Origin: Bradyrhizobium lupini
GTDB taxonomy: Bacteria > Pseudomonadota > Alphaproteobacteria > Rhizobiales > Xanthobacteraceae
Direction: 5' to 3'
Length of the DNA stretch: 64,000 nucleotides
Assembly (NCBI RefSeq): GCF_040939785.1
Contig: NZ_CP162553.1
Coordinates: 310,001-374,000, forward strand
Shown here piece after piece: positions 23,662-31,224 of the stretch. The notes under the pieces were generated by a model. That model had not been told where the DNA came from. It did not search any database and saw only the letters and a list, made by a program, of their open reading frames with translations. A program made the position numbers and the translations under genes. Within the stretch, counting starts at the first letter, position 1, and every line of letters begins with the position of its first letter.

Positions 23662-24677
23662 CTACTTCTTCACCTTGCTCGCATCCATCTTGATGGCGGG
23701 GTCCAGCATCTTGGTCGTGAACGCCGTCGTGACGTCGAACGGCTTCTCCATGCCGAGATAGGTCTGGACCAGATCGTAGTCCTTCTTCATCCGCTCGCCG
23801 TCGATCCAGCCGAGTGCCTTCGTCGTCGTGAATTCGTCCGTCATCAGGGACTTGATGCGCTCCCACTGGCGCTCCTGGTTCTCCTTGTCGAGACCGGAGA
23901 CCTGATCGAGCAGCGCCTTCAGGCAGGGCGCGGCGTCGGCGACGCAGGTCGCGAAGGCCTTTGCGTGACCCGCACGAACGCCTCGACCAGCTTCGGGTTC
24001 TTCTGCAGATAGCCGCCGTTGACGATCAGCGAATTGCCGTAAGGGTTGAGCCCGATGTCCTTCCAATTGACGTAGCCGAGATCGCTTCCGAACTCGATCA
24101 CCTTCAAATCGTGCTCGTTGTAGAAGTCGCTGATGATGTCGACCGTATGGCTCTTGAGCGCGGCGATCTTCGCCGTCGGCCCGACATTGACGAAGCCGAC
24201 GGAGTCGGGCGCAAGCCCTGCAGCCTTGGCGAAGGCCGGCCACATCACACGCGAGGCGTCCCCGGGCGGATTGCCGATCTTGTGGCCGGCAAAATCCTTC
24301 ACCCCGTTCACGCCGTAGCTCTTCAACCAGTAGAAGGTCTGGCCGGTGTTGGCGTAGACGCTCATCACGGCAACAGCGTCAGCCCCCTTGCTCTTCGCCA
24401 CCAGCATGGTGGCGAGATCGGCGACGCCGAAGGGCGAGCCGCCGGAGCCGACCTTGGCGGCGGAGACGCCGGAGCCCTTGCCGACCTCGATGGTCAGATC
24501 GATGCCCGCTTTCTCGTACCAGCCTTGCGCCTTGGCGTAATAATAGGGCGAGTGATCGGCCGTCGGCGCCCAGTTCAGAATCAGATTGACCGCCTCGCCC
24601 GCGTTCGCGGGCACGACTGGTGATCCGAGCATCAGGGCCACCGCCAGGGCCGAGCCCGCCGCCTGCAAACGCTTCAT
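23662..24677 (-). CDS. NMT1/THI5-like ABC transporter substrate-binding protein, one frameshift as sequenced
   Basis: ATG at 24677 with GAGGAGAG upstream opens a signal peptide (MKRLQAAGSALAVALMLGSP). The NMT1-like domain follows: LNWAPTADHSPYYYAKAQGW, YEKAGIDLTIEVGKGSG, ATMLVAKSKGADAVAV, and SLIVNGGYLQKNPKLVEAFV. One A is missing from an AAA tract near 23961. Restoring it continues VTQKAFATCVADAAPCLKAL to the stop at 23662, about 338 residues in all. It is the periplasmic receptor of the NitT/TauT-type importer whose permease and ATPase lie divergently at 25510 and 29194. Related proteins bind pyrimidines, riboflavin precursors or sulfonates; the ligand here is unknown. Confidence 0.85.
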
Positions 24678-24759
24678 CGCATCTCTCCTCGTTGCCCGCG
24701 ACCGGCTTGTCGCTCTCCCCCCGTGAGGATACCAATGCAACAAGGCCGCCCTCAACTTG

Positions 24760-24775
24760 TCAACTGTTTGGTTGG
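24760..24775. promoter_or_regulatory. Candidate TetR operator, site 1 (tcaac-N5-ggttg)
   Basis: tcaactgtttggttgg, sharing tcaac-N5-ggttg with the perfect palindrome at 25426. It lies between the divergent starts of the binding protein (24677) and the TetR gene (24778). Confidence 0.65.
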
Positions 24776-24777
24776 AA

Positions 24778-25425
24778 ATGCCCGCAAAACGTTCAGGCGA
24801 CACCGTGCCGCAGCGGCGCGACCCGGTCGCCACACGCAAGAAGCTGCTCACCGCGGCGCGCGAGGAGTTCGCCCGGCACGGCTTTGCCGGCGCCCGCGTC
24901 GACGAGATCGCAGAGCGCGCCGGTGTCAACAAGCAGCTCGTCTACCACTATTTCGGCGACAAGGACGCGCTCTATCTCGCCGTGCTCGAATGGGTTTACG
25001 CCGATATCCGCGAGCAGGAACGTCAGCTCAATCTCGAAGGCCTGCCGCCGGGAAAGGCGATCCGGAAACTGATCGAGGCCTCGTTCGATTACCTCGCGAC
25101 GAACCCCGATTTCATCGTGCTTCTGAACGACGAGAACCGCGGCGGTGCCCGCCACGTCCGCGGCTCGACGCGGCTGGAGGCGATGCATTCGCCGCTGGTG
25201 AAGAGCGTGTCCCACATCCTTCACGAAGGCGTCCGCGCCGGCATGTTCCGCAAGGGGATCGACCCGATCCAGCTCTATATCTCCATCGCGGGCCTCAGCT
25301 ATTTCTATCTCTCCAACACGCCGACGCTGTCGGCGATCTTCGGCAAGGACCTGTCGAGCCGGGCCGCGCGCCGCGCCCGCCGCCGGCACGTCGCCGATCT
25401 CGTGCTGCATTCGCTCCGGCCATAA
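24778..25425 (+). CDS. TetR family regulator of the ABC/aldolase locus, RutR-like
   Basis: A 215-residue repressor. The ATG at 24778 (MPAKRSGDTVPQ) is preferred to a TTG at 24757, which lies within the operator. The HTH reads VATRKKLLTAAREEFARHGF then GVNKQLVYHYFGDKDALYLAVL, with the LVYHYFGDKDALY signature seen in RutR-type regulators of pyrimidine use. The C-terminal domain (YLATNPDFIVLLNDENRGGA, LISIAGLSYFYLSNTPTLS type) is the ligand-binding part. It is bracketed by two copies of a tcaac-N5-ggttg palindrome, so autoregulation and control of both the divergent binding protein and the downstream operon are likely. Confidence 0.85.
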   Translation: MPAKRSGDTVPQRRDPVATRKKLLTAAREEFARHGFAGARVDEIAERAGVNKQLVYHYFGDKDALYLAVLEWVYADIREQERQLNLEGLPPGKAIRKLIEASFDYLATNPDFIVLLNDENRGGARHVRGSTRLEAMHSPLVKSVSHILHEGVRAGMFRKGIDPIQLYISIAGLSYFYLSNTPTLSAIFGKDLSSRAARRARRRHVADLVLHSLRP

Positions 25426-25441
25426 TCAACCAACTGGTTGA
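25426..25441. promoter_or_regulatory. Candidate TetR operator, site 2 (perfect 16-bp palindrome)
   Basis: tcaaccaactggttga is a perfect palindrome directly after the TetR stop codon and 68 bases before the permease start. It shares half-sites with site 1 at 24760. Confidence 0.7.
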
Positions 25442-25509
25442 AACTTCCCTCCGGGACGGCTAGGCTTGCGACCAGCGGCAAGGTGGCCGCTGACAGCAGG
25501 GGGTAACCG

Positions 25510-26280
25510 GTGACAGGAGACGGCGCCCGCAATACGCGCAGCTTTGCGATCGTCCTAATCGTGCACTTCGCCGTGCTGGTGCTCTGGCAGGTGCTGGTCG
25601 ATGCCTTCCACGTCCCGAAGTTCATCCTGCCCTCGCCGCTCGCGACAATCCAGACGCTGGGAACCGCGAGCTACGCCTGGGGCGCCAACACGCTGGTGAC
25701 GGCGATCGAGATCCTCGGCGGCTTTGCGCTCGGCGCCTTCGTCGGCGTGACGCTGGCCGTCATCTTCAGCTGGGCGCCGCTGATCAGCCTCGTGCTGCTG
25801 CCGCTGTTCGTGACGCTGAACATGATCCCGAAGGTCGCGCTTGGTCCGCTCCTCATCGTCTGGTTCTCCTACGGCATCGTGCCGAACATCCTGATCGCCT
25901 TCAGCATCTGCTTCTTCCCGATCCTGCTCACCACCGCGCGGGGCTTGCGCGAGGTCGAGCCGGATCTGCTCGACCTCGTCAAATCGCTGCGCGGCTCGCG
26001 CTGGACGCTGTTCCGCAAGATCCAGCTGCCGGGATCGCTGCCTTACATCTTCTCCGGAATGAAGGTCGGCGCCATCCTCGCGGTCGCCGGCGCCATAGTC
26101 GGCGAGTTCATCGCCTCCGAGCGCGGGCTCGGCTACCTCATGATCCAGGTGCAGTCGTCGCTCGACACGCCCGCGATGGTGATGGCCGTCGTGCTGCTCA
26201 CCCTGCTCGGCGTCGCGCTTTACGGCTTCGTGCTCGTCCTCGAACGCATCTTCGTCGTCGGCGACGCAAGACAAACTTGA
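25510..26280 (+). CDS. ABC transporter permease (NitT/TauT type)
   Basis: A 256-residue inner-membrane permease. GTG at 25510 follows a purine-rich cagggggtaacc. Six hydrophobic segments are visible, starting SFAIVLIVHFAVLVLWQVLV. The EAA loop that contacts the ATPase is seen in LREVEPDLLDLVKSLRGSRW...KIQLPGSLPYIFSGMKVG. Family BPD_transp_1 (SsuC/TauC/ThiX-like). First gene of the rightward operon, 18 bases before the SDR gene. Confidence 0.92.
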   Translation: MTGDGARNTRSFAIVLIVHFAVLVLWQVLVDAFHVPKFILPSPLATIQTLGTASYAWGANTLVTAIEILGGFALGAFVGVTLAVIFSWAPLISLVLLPLFVTLNMIPKVALGPLLIVWFSYGIVPNILIAFSICFFPILLTTARGLREVEPDLLDLVKSLRGSRWTLFRKIQLPGSLPYIFSGMKVGAILAVAGAIVGEFIASERGLGYLMIQVQSSLDTPAMVMAVVLLTLLGVALYGFVLVLERIFVVGDARQT

Positions 26281-26298
26281 AGATCAAGGACCAAAACC

Positions 26299-27336
26299 AT
26301 GCTCCTCACCCGCCACAACCTGCCGAAGACCATCCCTGATATCGCTGCGCTCGACGATCTCCTGTGCCGGCCGACCCAGGCATTGATCGACGACCTCGCC
26401 CGGGTCGACGGCGACATCATGATCCTCGGCGTCGCCGGCAAGATGGGGCCGACGCTTGCGGGGCTTGCCAAGGCCGCAGCGCCCGATCGCCGTGTCATCG
26501 GCGTCGCCCGCTTCAGCGACGCCGGCGTCAAGGACTGGCTGCACGCGCGTGGCGTCGAGACTATCAATTGCGACCTAATGGACGAGACCGCGATTCAGGC
26601 GCTGCCGAAGGCGCCCAACATTGTCTTCATGGCCGGCCGCAAATTCGGCGCTGAGGGCGATCTCTCGCTGACCTGGGCGATGAATGCGCACGTGCCGGCA
26701 CTGATCGCGCAGGCCTTCCCCTCGTCGCGGATCGTGGCGTTCTCGACCGGCTGCATCTATCCGTTCGTCCCCGTCGACGGCAAAGGATCGGGCGAGGACA
26801 TGGCGCCGAACCCGCCCGGCGAGTACGCCCAGTCCTGCGTGGGCCGCGAGCGCATGTTCGAGTATTTTTCGCGCAAGTTCGGAACGCCCGGGCGGCTATT
26901 CCGCCTCAACTACGCGATCGACATGCGCTATGGCGTGCTGCACGACATCGCCTTGAAAGTGCTCACGGGCACGCCGATCGACCTCAGCATCGGTCATGTC
27001 AATTTCATCTGGCAGGGCGATGCCTCATCGCAGGCGCTGCGCTGCCTCGCGCATTGCACAGCGCCGACCTCGCCGATCAATGTCAGCGGCCACGAGATTT
27101 TGGCGGTGCGCGACCTCGCAGCAAGATTCGGCGCCAGGTTCGGCCGTATGCCGGTGCTGACAGGAAACGAAGAGCCGACCGCGTGGCTGACCGACACGTC
27201 CAAGGCAGTCGAGCTTTTCGGCCTGCCGGTCGTCGACACCGAGCAGCTGATCGCCTGGACGGCGGATTGGGTGTCGCGCGCCATGCCGAGCCTCGGCAAG
27301 CCCACCAAATACGAGGTGCGCGATGGACGCTACTGA
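26299..27336 (+). CDS. NAD(P)-dependent epimerase/dehydratase-like protein (extended SDR)
   Basis: A 345-residue Rossmann protein. The nucleotide motif is ILGVAGKMGPTLAGLA (about 42-57; GxxGxxG). NIVFMAGRKFG follows beta-4, and the serine strand reads AFSTGCIYPFVP (148-158). The catalytic YxxxK is not conserved: Tyr176 is followed by AQSC, so Cys stands where Lys is expected. Later SPINVSGHEILAVRDLA matches the epimerase C-terminal half. The missing Lys suggests altered catalysis or a binding role. Gene order with transporter, GNAT and aldolase points to one pathway. Confidence 0.75.
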   Translation: MLLTRHNLPKTIPDIAALDDLLCRPTQALIDDLARVDGDIMILGVAGKMGPTLAGLAKAAAPDRRVIGVARFSDAGVKDWLHARGVETINCDLMDETAIQALPKAPNIVFMAGRKFGAEGDLSLTWAMNAHVPALIAQAFPSSRIVAFSTGCIYPFVPVDGKGSGEDMAPNPPGEYAQSCVGRERMFEYFSRKFGTPGRLFRLNYAIDMRYGVLHDIALKVLTGTPIDLSIGHVNFIWQGDASSQALRCLAHCTAPTSPINVSGHEILAVRDLAARFGARFGRMPVLTGNEEPTAWLTDTSKAVELFGLPVVDTEQLIAWTADWVSRAMPSLGKPTKYEVRDGRY

Positions 27337-28144
27337 CGATCCGCGCATCATCCAGCTTGGCGTCGAGGATGCTGCGGCGGGCCTCGCGCTCTCGACAGAG
27401 GCGCACTGGAACCAGAATGAAGACGACTGGCGGTTTTTCTTGAGCGACGGCGTCGCGTTCGGCATCCGTGATGGCGCGCAACTGGTCGCGACCGCAGCAC
27501 TCCTGCCCTACCCCGGCGACAACGCCTGGATCAGCATGGTGCTGGTGACGGCAAGCCATCGCCGACGCGGTCTCGCCACGCGGCTCGTCGACGCCTGCCT
27601 GGCGATGGCGCGCGAACGCGGCCTGACGAGCTGGCTCGACGCAACCCCGGACGGTGCTGCCGTCTATGGGCCGCTCGGGTTCACGCCGACCCTGCAATTG
27701 CGCCGGCTCAAGCTGGTGAAATCGGCATCCGCGTCCGGGCAGGCACCTTCGTCCGCGACGCTCGACGCGCTCCGCGCGCGCGACCGGCGCGCCACGGGCC
27801 TCGATCGAACCGCCCTGCTCTCCAACTTCGCGCAGCGTTCCGGCTCGCGCATCGTCGCCGCGAACGGCGCCATCGCGCTGGTTCGCGACGGACGTACCGC
27901 GCGCCATATCGGCCCGCTGCTTGCCGACGACGCGGCAGCCGCGCTGACCCTGGTCGATGCCATCGCGCGATCGGAGACCGGACCGCTGCTGCTCGATGCC
28001 GTCGCGTCGCAAGCCGCGTTCCCTGAAGGATTGACCGCATCCGGCTGGATCATCGAGCGCCCGTTCCAGCGCATGCGGTTCGGCCCCGCTAAGACCGCGG
28101 GTGAAGACATGCCATTCGCCGTCGCCGGCCCTGAATTCGGATAG
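27323..28144 (+). CDS. GNAT family N-acetyltransferase
   Basis: A 273-residue two-part protein. Residues 1-130 form a GNAT domain with acetyl-CoA motif VTASHRRRGLATRLVDACL (about 76-94) and the YGPLGFTPT segment near 115. The second half resembles the C-terminal domain of YitH-type acetyltransferases (GSRIVAANGAIALVRDGRTA...). The start overlaps the preceding SDR by 14 bases, showing tight coupling. It probably acetylates an amine, either the imported compound or an intermediate; this is inference. Confidence 0.82.
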   Translation: MDATDDPRIIQLGVEDAAAGLALSTEAHWNQNEDDWRFFLSDGVAFGIRDGAQLVATAALLPYPGDNAWISMVLVTASHRRRGLATRLVDACLAMARERGLTSWLDATPDGAAVYGPLGFTPTLQLRRLKLVKSASASGQAPSSATLDALRARDRRATGLDRTALLSNFAQRSGSRIVAANGAIALVRDGRTARHIGPLLADDAAAALTLVDAIARSETGPLLLDAVASQAAFPEGLTASGWIIERPFQRMRFGPAKTAGEDMPFAVAGPEFG

Positions 28145-28150
28145 GACATC

Positions 28151-29206
28151 ATGCACCACAGCCAGATCAACAGCGAGATCCGCAAGCTGATCGCCGACGG
28201 CACCGTGCTGCCGGCGCATCCCCTCGCGCTCACCGCCGAACGCCAGCTCGACAAAAAGCATCAGCGCGCGCTGACGCGCTATTACATCGAAGCCGGCTCC
28301 GGCGGCCTTGCGGTCGGCGTGCACACCACGCAGTTCGCGATCCGTGACGTCGGCCTCTATCGTCCCGTGCTGGAGCTCGCCGCCGAGACGGCGGCGAACT
28401 GGACCAAGCGTCCGCTGGCGCTGGTCGCGGGCATCGCCGGTCCGACTAGGCAGGCCACCGCTGAAGCCCGCACCGCGCGCGACATCGGCTATCACGCAGG
28501 GCTCCTCAGTCTCGCTGCGATGAAGAGGGCGTCGGAGGACGAGATCATCGCGCATTGCGCAGCGGTCGCAGCCGAAATTCCGCTGGTCGGCTTCTATCTT
28601 CAGCCGGCGGTCGGCGGCGTGGTCCTGTCGAGCCGGTTCTGGCAGCGCTTTGCCTCGATCGACAATGTCATCGCGATCAAGATCGCGCCGTTCAACCGCT
28701 ACCGGACCCTTGATGTTTTGCGCGGCGTCGCAGCAGCCGGCGCGCTCGACCGCGTTGCGCTCTATACCGGCAATGATGACCACATCCTGCTCGATTTGAT
28801 GCTGCCGTTCGACCTCCGCGACAACGGCGTCACCACGCGCACTTATTTCAAAGGCGGCCTGCTCGGCCACTGGTCGGTGTGGACGGCGAGCGCGATCAAA
28901 CAGTTCGAGCGCTGCAAAGCGGCACGGCACAAGGACAGCGTGCCGGCCGATTTGCTCGCGCTCGATGCCCGCGTCACCGATTGCAACAGCGCCTTCTTCG
29001 ACGTCGCCAACGATTTTCACGGCTGCATCGCCGGCTGCCATGAGGTGCTGCGACGGCAGGGCCTGATGCAGGGCCTGTGGTGCCTCGATCCGAACGAGGG
29101 CCTGAGCCCCGGCCAGAAGGACGAGATCGAGCGCGTGTACCGCGAGCATTCCGACCTCAGCGACGACGCGTTCGTGGCCGCAAACTTGGATAAATGGCTG
29201 GCATGA
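28151..29206 (+). CDS. Dihydrodipicolinate synthase (DapA)-family aldolase/lyase
   Basis: A 351-residue TIM-barrel protein, longer than DapA (about 290). The Schiff-base Lys is in VIAIKIAPFNRY (Lys177) and a Tyr in VGFYLQPAVGG (Tyr149) takes the DapA Tyr133 place. N-terminal AHPLALTAERQLDKKHQRAL and the AGSGGLAVGVHTTQF loop replace the usual G-T-TGE motif, so the substrate is not the usual one. A C-terminal extension includes DCNSAFFDVANDFHGCIAGC. Such proteins cleave or form C-C bonds of 2-oxo acids. It lies six bases after the GNAT gene and overlaps the ATPase gene by 13. Confidence 0.82.
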   Translation: MHHSQINSEIRKLIADGTVLPAHPLALTAERQLDKKHQRALTRYYIEAGSGGLAVGVHTTQFAIRDVGLYRPVLELAAETAANWTKRPLALVAGIAGPTRQATAEARTARDIGYHAGLLSLAAMKRASEDEIIAHCAAVAAEIPLVGFYLQPAVGGVVLSSRFWQRFASIDNVIAIKIAPFNRYRTLDVLRGVAAAGALDRVALYTGNDDHILLDLMLPFDLRDNGVTTRTYFKGGLLGHWSVWTASAIKQFERCKAARHKDSVPADLLALDARVTDCNSAFFDVANDFHGCIAGCHEVLRRQGLMQGLWCLDPNEGLSPGQKDEIERVYREHSDLSDDAFVAANLDKWLA

Positions 29207-29976
29207 GCTCAAGCCCCTTCATCAGCCTGCACGGCGTCCGCAAGGTCTATCGCAGCGGCGGCGCCGAATTCCTCGCGGTGTCCGACGTCACCATGGACGT
29301 GCAGGAGGGTGAGCTGGTCTCGCTGGTCGGCCCGTCCGGCTGCGGCAAGACCACCGTGATGAAGATTTTGGCCGGCTTGCACGACGCCGACGGCGGCACG
29401 GTGAAGATCGGCAACGCCAAAAGCCCGTTCGATCCGACCCGCGACATTGGCATGGTGTTCCAGCAGGCGTTGCTGCTGAAATGGCGGACCATCCTGGACA
29501 ACGTGCTGCTGCCGGCAGAGATCGTCGGTCTTCCGATGAAGGCCGCGCGCGAGCGGGCGCGCGATCTGCTCAATCTGGTGGGTCTTGCCGGGTACGAGCA
29601 GAAATATCCGCGCGAGCTGTCCGGCGGCATGCAGCAGCGCACCGCCATCGCGCGCGCCTTCATTCACGACCCGAAACTGATCCTGATGGACGAGCCGTTC
29701 GGCGCGCTCGACGCCTTGACGCGCGAGCAGATGAATCTGGAGATGCTGCGGATCTGGCGCGAGAGCGGCAAGACCATCATCTTCATCACGCACTCGATCC
29801 AGGAGGCCGTGTTCCTGTCCTCGCACTGCGCCGTGCTGACGGCCGGACCTGCGAAGATGGCCGATTATTTCCCCATCGACCTGCCCTTCCCACGGGCTCT
29901 GCCGCTGAAAACGACGGACGCGTTCGGCGCCTATGCGCGGCGGATTTACGAGAAGCTGGGTTTGGGCGCGGCTTAA
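29194..29976 (+). CDS. ABC transporter ATP-binding protein (NitT/TauT type)
   Basis: A 260-residue nucleotide-binding subunit. Walker A GPSGCGKTT, Q-loop MVFQQALLLKW, signature LSGGMQQR, Walker B LILMDEPFGALD and the H-loop ITHSIQEA are all intact. It energises import with the permease at 25510 and the divergent binding protein. The start at 29194 overlaps the aldolase gene; an ATG nine bases later (MSSSPF) is an alternative. Last gene of the operon, followed by a palindromic repeat. Confidence 0.93.
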   Translation: MAGMSSSPFISLHGVRKVYRSGGAEFLAVSDVTMDVQEGELVSLVGPSGCGKTTVMKILAGLHDADGGTVKIGNAKSPFDPTRDIGMVFQQALLLKWRTILDNVLLPAEIVGLPMKAARERARDLLNLVGLAGYEQKYPRELSGGMQQRTAIARAFIHDPKLILMDEPFGALDALTREQMNLEMLRIWRESGKTIIFITHSIQEAVFLSSHCAVLTAGPAKMADYFPIDLPFPRALPLKTTDAFGAYARRIYEKLGLGAA

Positions 29977-30132: not shown

Positions 30133-31224
30133 TCAAGCCTTGTTGCGCATCTTGCCGAGCAGATAATTGTCGTAAAAATTCTCCGCGATCTGCGTGTAGA
30201 ACAGCAGCTCCTTCATATAGGCGTCGTGGCTTTCCTTGGTGCGCTTGAACAGGTCGCTCTTGATGGCGAGCTCGTTCAGATGGTCCTGGGTCGCGGTGTA
30301 GCAGGCCTCCAGCACCGGCTGCGGAAACGCCTTCAGCTCCGCGCCGTTGGCGATCAGCCGCTTCAGCGCCGCCGGATTCACGCTGTCGTATTTCTCGAGC
30401 ATCCAGGCGCCCGCGGCCGACGCGGCCTGGTTGACGATCGCCTGGTACTGCTTCGGCAGCGACGCCCACTTCTCGTCGTTGACGATCATGTGCAGCATGG
30501 CGCCGCCTTCCCACCAGCCGGGGAAGTAGTAATATTTGGCGACCTTCTGGAAGCCGAGCTTCTCGTCGTCATAGGGGCCGACGAATTCGACTGCGTCGAT
30601 CGTGCCCTTCTCCAGCGCCGGATAGATGTCGCCGCCCGCGATCTGCTGCGGGACCACGCCGAGCCGCGCCAGCACATGACCACCCATCCCGGCGATGCGG
30701 AATTTCAGGCCCTTGAGATCGTCGACGGTCTTGATCTCCTTGCGGAACCAGCCGCCCATCTGGGTGCCGGAATTGCCGCAGAGGATGGCATGCGCCTTGA
30801 ACGGCTTCAGCGCCTCATTGGTGAGGTCGGCGCCGCCGCCGAAATGCCACCAGGATTCCTGATGGCGATGGTTCATGCCGAACGGCGCGCCGGTGGCATA
30901 GGCCAGCGCCGGCTCCTTGCCGATGTAGAAATAGAGCGGGGTCTGCGCCATGTCGACAGAAGCGGTGCTGACCGCATCGAGCGCCTGCAGGCCGGGAACG
31001 AGCTCGCCGGCCGCGAAGGTCTGGATCTGGAATTTGTTGTCGGTGGCCTCGGCAACATATTTCGCAAAAGTCTGAGCGGTGCCGTAGATAGTGTCCAGCG
31101 ACTTCGGGAAGCTCGAGGTCAGGCGCCATTTGATCTCGGGCGCGCTTTGCGCGATCGCAGGTGCGGCAACCAGCGTCGTCGCGCCGGCAACCGCGCCGCC
31201 CTTGAGGAATGTACGGCGTTTCAT
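30133..31224 (-). CDS. TRAP transporter substrate-binding protein (DctP family), Tat-exported
   Basis: A 363-residue periplasmic receptor. The N-terminus MKRRTFLKGGAVAGATTLVA is a twin-arginine signal ending APAIA-QSA. The DctP fold shows SSFPKSLDTIYGTAQTFAKY, the conserved Arg in GLKFRIAGMGGHVLARLGV, and EFVGPYDDEKLGFQKVAKYY with FPGWWEGGAMLH, typical of TakP-like receptors for 2-oxo acids or related carboxylates. No DctQ or DctM gene is adjacent, so it is an orphan receptor or works with a distant membrane subunit. Confidence 0.9.
   Translation of the reverse strand: MKRRTFLKGGAVAGATTLVAAPAIAQSAPEIKWRLTSSFPKSLDTIYGTAQTFAKYVAEATDNKFQIQTFAAGELVPGLQALDAVSTASVDMAQTPLYFYIGKEPALAYATGAPFGMNHRHQESWWHFGGGADLTNEALKPFKAHAILCGNSGTQMGGWFRKEIKTVDDLKGLKFRIAGMGGHVLARLGVVPQQIAGGDIYPALEKGTIDAVEFVGPYDDEKLGFQKVAKYYYFPGWWEGGAMLHMIVNDEKWASLPKQYQAIVNQAASAAGAWMLEKYDSVNPAALKRLIANGAELKAFPQPVLEACYTATQDHLNELAIKSDLFKRTKESHDAYMKELLFYTQIAENFYDNYLLGKMRNKA

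What the first reader, a model, noticed from the sequence alone, without database searches (positions are those of the whole stretch)
23662..29976. Uncharacterised uptake and catabolic locus: NMT1-type ABC importer with SDR, GNAT and DapA-like aldolase under a RutR-like TetR regulator
Seen: a binding protein (minus), then TetR, permease, SDR, GNAT, DapA-like protein and ATPase (plus), with overlaps of 14 and 13 bases and gaps of 18 and 6 bases, so the metabolic genes are embedded between the transporter subunits in one operon. Known: NitT/TauT importers carry pyrimidines, sulfonates, nitrate and similar small molecules; DapA-family lyases act on 2-oxo acids; GNATs acetylate amines. Inference: the compound imported is an amine or N-heterocycle that is acetylated, oxidised or epimerised and then cleaved. 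I know of no described pathway with this exact gene set. The 351-residue aldolase keeps Lys177 but has a changed active-site loop, which points to a new substrate.
Basis: partly seen in the sequence, partly recalled or inferred. Interest (0 to 1): 0.72.

Follow-up and report, generated by a model that had tools for sequence, protein, structure and literature searches.

The report
Uncharacterised sugar-acid-type uptake and breakdown operon
This Bradyrhizobium-type stretch holds a real, widely conserved but unstudied operon that imports a small molecule and probably breaks it down like a sugar acid; its dehydrogenase-like enzyme has lost a residue normally needed for catalysis and usually sits beside the same lyase, even in distant bacteria.

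Summary
The genes are there as described: SBP(-), TetR, permease, SDR, GNAT, DapA-like, ATPase, with gaps 18, -14, 6, -13. One correction: the SBP gene is broken by a one-base frameshift here; relatives carry an intact 338-aa copy. It is not a chance grouping: all 41 genomes with a strong DapA-like match in a 198-genome family draw carry the SDR, 39 of 41 within 8 kb; 19 of 20 plasmid records with the DapA-like protein also match the SDR, across four phyla. The amine/N-heterocycle inference is not supported. Recurrent neighbours are Gfo/Idh/MocA dehydrogenases, xylose-isomerase-like barrels, an enolase-superfamily enzyme and DUF993. This genome has such a second module 1.16 Mb away, with its own NMT1 importer and a TetR 50% identical; in Rhodopseudomonas the two modules are adjacent. 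In 5 of 7 inspected SDR-only genomes the partner is an FAH-family hydrolase. The SDR's YxxxK lysine is Cys or Val in 40 of 40 aligned members. Best reading: an uncharacterised non-phosphorylative, 2-oxo-3-deoxy-acid-type catabolic route; substrate unknown.

The parts
23662..24677 (-). NMT1/NitT-TauT-type solute-binding protein gene, split by a one-base frameshift (N part 23919-24677, C part from about 23990 down to 23662)
   Evidence: PF09084 over cut-off on the N part; both parts match one intact 338-aa gene in relatives; frames printed
24759..24776 (.). operator-like half-palindrome GTCAACTGTTTGGTTGGA just upstream of tetR
   Evidence: site upstream of TetR in 59 of 60 Bradyrhizobium-type loci with TetR
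24778..25425 (+). TetR-family regulator, RutR-like (TetR_C_29), 215 aa
25425..25442 (.). operator-like palindrome ATCAACCAACTGGTTGAA between tetR and the permease gene
   Evidence: exact core match; downstream site in 58 of 60 Bradyrhizobium-type loci with TetR
25510..26280 (+). ABC permease, 256 aa
   Evidence: PF00528
26299..27336 (+). extended-SDR-fold protein, 345 aa; GxxGKMG motif; Y176-A-Q-S-C180 in place of YxxxK
27323..28144 (+). GNAT acetyltransferase with a second GNAT domain, 273 aa
   Evidence: PF00583 and PF18014; conserved residues
28151..29206 (+). DapA/NAL-superfamily lyase, 351 aa, Lys177, Tyr149, HTTQF loop
29194..29976 (+). ABC ATPase, 260 aa
   Evidence: PF00005

Best explanation
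An operon under a local RutR-like TetR repressor imports a small organic acid or polyol through an NMT1-type ABC importer and degrades it by a non-phosphorylative, 2-oxo-3-deoxy-acid-type route. Proposed order: a Gfo/Idh/MocA dehydrogenase and a xylose-isomerase-like barrel, with an enolase-superfamily enzyme (all in the second module of this genome, 1.495-1.504 Mb), prepare a 2-oxo acid; the SDR-fold protein acts on it; the DapA-fold lyase forms a Schiff base at Lys177 and cleaves or dehydrates it. Shown here: gene conservation, SDR-DapA linkage, second module, predicted folds and conserved residues. Inferred: chemistry, step order, substrate class, that TetR is a repressor, roles of GNAT and DUF993.
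For: SDR in 41 of 41 genomes with a DapA-like match at E below 1e-40 (23 weaker matches set aside), 39 of 41 within 8 kb; in the other two the DapA gene lies within 2.6 kb of a contig start. Both proteins match 19 of 20 plasmid records found with DapA, from Alphaproteobacteria, Actinomycetota, Bacillota and Planctomycetota. Class draw: 35 of 385 genomes positive; within 10 kb in 33 fetched regions: SDR 28, GNAT 27, GfoA 18, MR490 16, isoD 15, DUF993 13. Own second module TetR-permease-SBP-ATPase-MR490-GfoA-DUF993-isoD, adjacent to the window-type module in Rhodopseudomonas L085; SDR, DapA, GfoA, DUF993, isoD and MR490 all in one locus in 8 of the 136 scanned. FAH hydrolase beside the SDR in 5 of 7 fetched SDR-only genomes; the two scanned reach 409 and 423 bits to NF053535. 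Lys177 in 28 of 28. Fates of 2-keto-3-deoxy acids (Routes I-III): PMC6336799 (abstract parts and passages).
Against: No substrate or activity is known for any member. GfoA also occurs in 56 of 157 DapA-negative genomes, so module 2 stands alone too. The family is sparse (5 of 150 in a phylum draw). GNAT, PhyH, MetE-like and amidase neighbours do not fit a simple sugar-acid route; two of three haloarchaeal SDRs sit near DegT aminotransferases. NMT1 importers and the ThiY-like nearest solved SBPs do not point to sugars. The SDR lacks the catalytic lysine. The MR490 invariants resemble the muconate-lactonising type (recalled), not classical acid-sugar dehydratases. Neighbour families match curated sugar-enzyme models only below their cut-offs. 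The window's own SBP is broken.
Confidence: 0.58

Rival explanations
1. One reading: an amine or N-heterocycle is imported, acetylated by the GNAT, oxidised or epimerised by the SDR and cleaved by the aldolase.
For: GNAT within 10 kb in 27 of 33 class regions and next to the pair in a planctomycete; amidase near 7 of 33, some at low identity; SBP nearest, after 4nmy, to pyrimidine-binding ThiY/THI5 among solved structures; DegT aminotransferases beside two of three haloarchaeal SDRs.
Against: GNAT was found near the pair in only 4 of 13 fetched plasmid regions, not in those of Streptomyces, Rhodococcus, Bacillota or Nitratireductor; neighbours are Gfo/Idh, sugar-isomerase-like, enolase-superfamily and carbohydrate ABC genes; alternative partner is a diketo-acid-type hydrolase.
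Confidence: 0.2
2. A cyclitol or methylated-cyclitol (for example inositol ether or aminocyclitol) pathway: GfoA oxidises the ring, barrels epimerise or dehydrate, and the DapA lyase cleaves the opened 2-oxo acid; PhyH and MetE-like enzymes would remove methyl groups.
For: GfoA of L107 matches the inositol 2-dehydrogenase and levoglucosan dehydrogenase models below cut-off; isoA matches 5-keto-L-gluconate epimerase below cut-off; scyllo-inositol dehydrogenases among solved relatives of GfoA; PhyH near 9 and MetE-like near 8 of 33 regions.
Against: All matches are far below curated cut-offs; no ring-opening enzyme identified; tripartite tricarboxylate transporter genes (carboxylates) near 5 (SBP) and 4 (TctA) of 33.
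Confidence: 0.17
3. The SDR-fold protein is not an oxidoreductase but a cofactor-bound lyase, isomerase or scaffold for the DapA-like lyase.
For: Catalytic Lys replaced in 40 of 40 aligned members; close linkage to the lyase.
Against: The nested SDR clade that pairs with FAH hydrolase (support 0.992, midpoint rooting) fits a retained enzyme step independent of DapA; Rossmann motif (32 of 32) and Tyr176 (40 of 40) are kept.
Confidence: 0.15

Closest known systems
Non-phosphorylative 2-keto-3-deoxy acid-sugar pathways, Routes I-III (PMC6336799, abstract parts and passages seen)
   Same: Cluster logic of transporter, regulator, SDR and either an aldolase/dehydratase or an FAH hydrolase; enolase-superfamily dehydratases pair with dehydrogenases in such routes (PMC10444878, passages seen)
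   Different: SDR here is an extended-SDR-fold protein without YxxxK, not a COG1028 dehydrogenase; NMT1 importer; GNAT, DUF993 and Gfo/Idh genes added; the enolase-superfamily member matches Pfam only below its cut-off
DHDPS/N-acetylneuraminate lyase superfamily (DapA, NanA, L-KDA dehydratase)
   Same: Fold, PF00701 over cut-off, aligned Lys and Tyr
   Different: HTTQF instead of GTTGE; 351 residues against 291 for the best PDB sequence match 3pud; below every NCBIfam cut-off it matched
TerB oxidoreductase (PDB 6d2v, 6nd7)
   Same: Best sequence and fold match of the SDR in the PDB
   Different: About 20% identity; TerB keeps YxxxK; the p-terphenyl partner DatC/EchC is described as a limonene-1,2-epoxide hydrolase, not DapA-like (PMC9379647 passages; equating it with TerC is recalled)
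RutR
   Same: TetR fold, TetR_C_29, similar palindromic operator (RutR operator recalled)
   Different: Far below the RutR cut-off; of two exact operator matches in the genome the other lies, by eye, inside a reading frame

Membership tests
SDR superfamily (catalytically classical) | GxxGxxG Rossmann motif and fold | tested here: met
   G44, G47, G50 in 32 of 32; extended-SDR fold in a model of pLDDT 89.7
SDR superfamily (catalytically classical) | YxxxK active site | tested here: not met
   Tyr176 in 40 of 40 but position 180 Cys in 38 and Val in 2, never Lys; aligned to TerB's Lys
DHDPS/NAL superfamily | PF00701 domain and barrel fold | tested here: met
   36 bits, cut-off 22.1; fold match of the model
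DHDPS/NAL superfamily | Schiff-base lysine | tested here: met
   Lys177 in 28 of 28, aligned; presence only, Schiff base not shown
DapA, NanA or KdgD (specific enzymes) | curated NCBIfam cut-off | tested here: not met
   best 23.8 bits against 278
RutR | equivalog cut-off 368 bits | tested here: not met
   68.7 bits
NitT/TauT-type ABC importer | NMT1 SBP, permease and ATPase together | tested here: met
   SBP gene frameshifted in this genome
NitT/TauT-type ABC importer | membership of a characterised receptor (SsuA, TauA) | tested here: not met
   48.7 against 163.5 and 24.6 against 304 bits, for the N part only
Route III (diketo-hydrolase) pathway | FAH hydrolase over NF053535 cut-off in SDR-only loci | tested here: not met
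   408.8 and 422.9 bits against 500 for the two FAH proteins scanned
Route III (diketo-hydrolase) pathway | dehydrogenase activity on a 2-keto-3-deoxy acid | not testable with these tools
   needs an assay

The most novel reading that the evidence does not exclude
The SDR-fold protein with its catalytic lysine replaced by cysteine and the HTTQF DapA-fold lyase form a two-enzyme unit for an undescribed C-C cleavage, the core of an undescribed catabolic pathway spread over four bacterial phyla, whose lyase step has been swapped for an FAH hydrolase in one SDR clade.
Probability: 0.4. Interest if true: 0.72.

Novelty: new variant of a known kind. Interest (0 to 1): 0.52.

Why it matters
It turns a loosely annotated operon into a defined, testable pathway: two modules, seven enzymes, two importers and a candidate operator. 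The family recurs in Alphaproteobacteria, Betaproteobacteria, Actinomycetota, Bacillota and Planctomycetota, many of them soil or plant-associated, so the substrate may be common in soil. It would give functions to DUF993 (a relative is solved as 4dnh, named uncharacterized), the Gfo/Idh protein solved as 3oqb ('oxidoreductase') and an SDR subfamily that lacks the textbook lysine.

Tried and rejected
TerB/TerC analogy: the SDR's best PDB match is TerB, but PMC9379647 (passages) names the partner DatC a limonene-1,2-epoxide hydrolase (that TerC corresponds to DatC/EchC is recalled), so the pair is not a TerB/TerC pair. Other phyla as whole genomes were not reached, so Actinomycetota, Bacillota, Planctomycetota and haloarchaea are known here from plasmid records only. 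Operator regulon: the second exact match (L130) lies, by eye, inside a long reading frame and is taken as chance; the one single-mismatch site (L131) and 32 two-mismatch sites were not inspected one by one. The operator is weak outside the window-type loci (up 7, down 5, both 4 of 27 loci with TetR in L134-L173). Plain ORF calling gave many antisense ORFs and was replaced by a codon-position score, which still misses some genes. No Rfam search, no PADLOC or PHROGs search and no third protein-database search was made. Haloarchaeal SDRs without a DapA-like match were seen but not resolved. Of the 12 SDR-only genomes 5 were not fetched. Paper searches returned no paper; others returned papers, none seen (listing or passages) that describes this gene set; the library lacks most subscription journals.
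Full report
Observation. The window lies in a 7.83 Mb single-contig genome whose nearest named relatives are Bradyrhizobium. Two corrections: the binding-protein gene is split by a one-base frameshift (N part in one minus-strand frame, C part in another) while relatives hold an intact 338-aa gene, and TetR most likely starts at 24778. Upstream lie MinC and a MinD-like frame (named by eye), downstream a TRAP DctP-type binding protein, all on the minus strand.

Is it chance? No. Of the other 17, SDR is in 15, GNAT in 13 and TetR in 12. In a draw of 198 genomes of the family, 41 have the DapA-like protein at E below 1e-40; 23 further genomes with weaker matches were set aside. All 41 have the SDR, 39 within 8 kb on the same contig; in the other two the DapA gene lies within 2.6 kb of a contig start. 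The Fisher value there (5e-32) ignores relatedness. In a phylum draw only 5 of 150 genomes have it. In PLSDB plasmids 20 records match the DapA-like protein and 26 the SDR; 19 of the 20 are shared, the exception being a 504-base record. They come from Alphaproteobacteria, Streptomyces, Rhodococcus, Prescottella, Glaciihabitans, Nonomuraea, Paenibacillus, Mesobacillus, Subdoligranulum and a planctomycete. In the 13 plasmid regions fetched, the SDR lies beside or one gene from DapA in 13 of 13; 11 of the 13 have annotated neighbourhoods, two have none.

What surrounds it. In a draw of 385 Alphaproteobacteria, 35 have the DapA-like protein at E<=1e-60 (query from L102). I fetched regions for 33 of these 35 (the window genome and G024 left out). 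Within 10 kb: SDR 28, GNAT 27, ATPase 22, NMT1 SBP 19, permease 19, GfoA (Gfo/Idh/MocA) 18, MR490 (enolase superfamily) 16, isoD (xylose-isomerase-like) 15, DUF993 13, isoA 12, PhyH 9, MetE-like 8, amidase 7 of 33. Some regions are cut by contig ends. Five of 33 show no SDR within 10 kb. In Gram-positives and Nitratireductor the pair sits with carbohydrate ABC, MFS or tripartite tricarboxylate transporters, and in several with Gfo/Idh and sugar-isomerase-like genes.

The second module. The window genome has one MR490 relative and one close GfoA relative besides two weak ones; the two lie side by side at 1,497,377-1,499,922. The full set there, all on the minus strand, is TetR (50% identical to the window TetR), permease, NMT1 SBP, ATPase, MR490, GfoA, DUF993, isoD (1,495,298-1,503,641). 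In L085 (Rhodopseudomonas palustris 2.1.18) MR490-GfoA-DUF993-isoD lies directly next to SBP-TetR-permease-SDR-GNAT-DapA-ATPase. SDR, DapA, GfoA, DUF993, isoD and MR490 occur together in 8 of 136 scanned loci (L085, L105, L107, L142, L143, L144, L156, L165). Against tight coupling: GfoA (E<=1e-100) occurs in 36 of 41 DapA-positive genomes but also in 56 of 157 DapA-negative ones.

The partner swap. Twelve genomes of the family draw have the SDR without the DapA-like protein. I fetched 7 of the 12 and one second SDR copy (G067). In 5 of 7 and in that copy, the SDR is followed by a frame of 228-285 aa and an FAH-family hydrolase; MR490 and a module-2-type NMT1 importer are adjacent in 4 of 7. 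Two of these FAH proteins scanned against NCBIfam reach 409 and 423 bits against 2,4-didehydro-3-deoxy-L-rhamnonate hydrolase, cut-off 500. The two remaining genomes have SDR and GNAT without either lyase in the fetched stretch. In one haloarchaeal plasmid too the SDR is followed by an FAH-family gene. FAH-type SDRs form one nested clade (7 sequences, including the second SDR of L107, for which FAH was not shown; support 0.992, midpoint rooting). PMC6336799 (abstract parts and passages) describes three fates of 2-keto-3-deoxy acids: aldol cleavage, dehydration, or dehydrogenation by an SDR plus hydrolysis by an FAH-type enzyme. The swap fits this logic and is the best clue to the chemistry.

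The enzymes. SDR: AlphaFold2 model pLDDT 89.7 from a 34-row alignment, extended-SDR fold, best TerB and NDP-sugar epimerases. Of 32 aligned members Tyr176, Arg183, Glu184, Lys48 and Lys115 are invariant (in another set of 34, Glu184 is Asp once). Position 180, which aligns with TerB's catalytic Lys, is Cys in 38 and Val in 2 of 40, FAH-type members included, never Lys. DapA-like: pLDDT 89.2, DapA/NanA/L-KDA dehydratase fold; Lys177, His58, Thr60, Gln61, Phe62 in 28 of 28, Tyr149 in 26 of 28. MR490: KxK, D, E, D/E and K kept in at least 24 of 25, resembling the muconate-lactonising subgroup (recalled). GNAT: ordinary GNAT with a second domain, least conserved of the set.

Regulation. A RutR-like palindrome (16 fixed letters) lies on both sides of tetR. 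In 60 Bradyrhizobium-type loci with TetR, 59 have the upstream and 58 the downstream site (12 of 16 or better), 57 both, against shuffle rates of 0.004 and 0.000. Elsewhere it weakens: both sites in 7 of 15 (L094-L122) and 4 of 27 (L134-L173) loci with TetR. In the genome the pattern has two exact matches, one with one mismatch and 32 with two, 35 in all against 9 for the reversed control pattern; the other exact one lies, by eye, in a long reading frame.

Transport. The intact SBP of a relative is nearest to 4nmy and ThiY/THI5 among solved chains, and the window N part is below all SsuA/TauA cut-offs. In a screen of R. palustris binding proteins, five of this type (COG0715) bound asparagine, malate, citrate, guanine or thiamine (PMC3223731, passages), so an acid ligand is possible but not shown for this one; I did not find whether the relative of this SBP was in that screen.

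Verdict. The pathway appears undescribed within the limits of the searches named above. I rate it a new variant of the known non-phosphorylative acid-sugar-type pathways, with moderate confidence, the substrate being open.

Noticed in passing
window 23662-24677 (-): SBP gene carries a one-base frameshift in a gene intact in relatives; error or real loss unknown.
   Followed up: partly
G000:C1:1495298-1503641 (locus L180): Second NMT1 importer module with TetR paralogue, MR490, GfoA, DUF993 and isoD; a cytochrome P450 and a glyoxalase-type gene lie beside it.
   Followed up: yes
L181, L182, L183, L184, L187, L188, L107 (next to SDR): Frames of about 220-285 aa beside FAH-type SDRs; the three scanned (L181, L107, L188) have no Pfam hit.
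   Followed up: partly
L105, L107, L140, L147, L149, L150, L153, L157, L159, L161, L170-L172: Cobalamin-independent methionine-synthase-like catalytic domain (334 aa in L105), in seven of these loci together with a PhyH dioxygenase, linked to the cluster; role unknown.
   Followed up: no
L082:11955-12965: Second SBP copy (72-76% to the window SBP pieces) just downstream of the operon.
   Followed up: no
L125, L126, L127: Haloarchaeal plasmids carry the same lysine-less SDR (42-44%) with no DapA-like match in their records; one has an FAH-family gene next to it, two have DegT aminotransferases nearby.
   Followed up: partly
window 30133-31224 (-): TRAP DctP-type binding protein gene just downstream, also found in 27 of the 31 loci L031-L061; relation to the operon unknown.
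   Followed up: no
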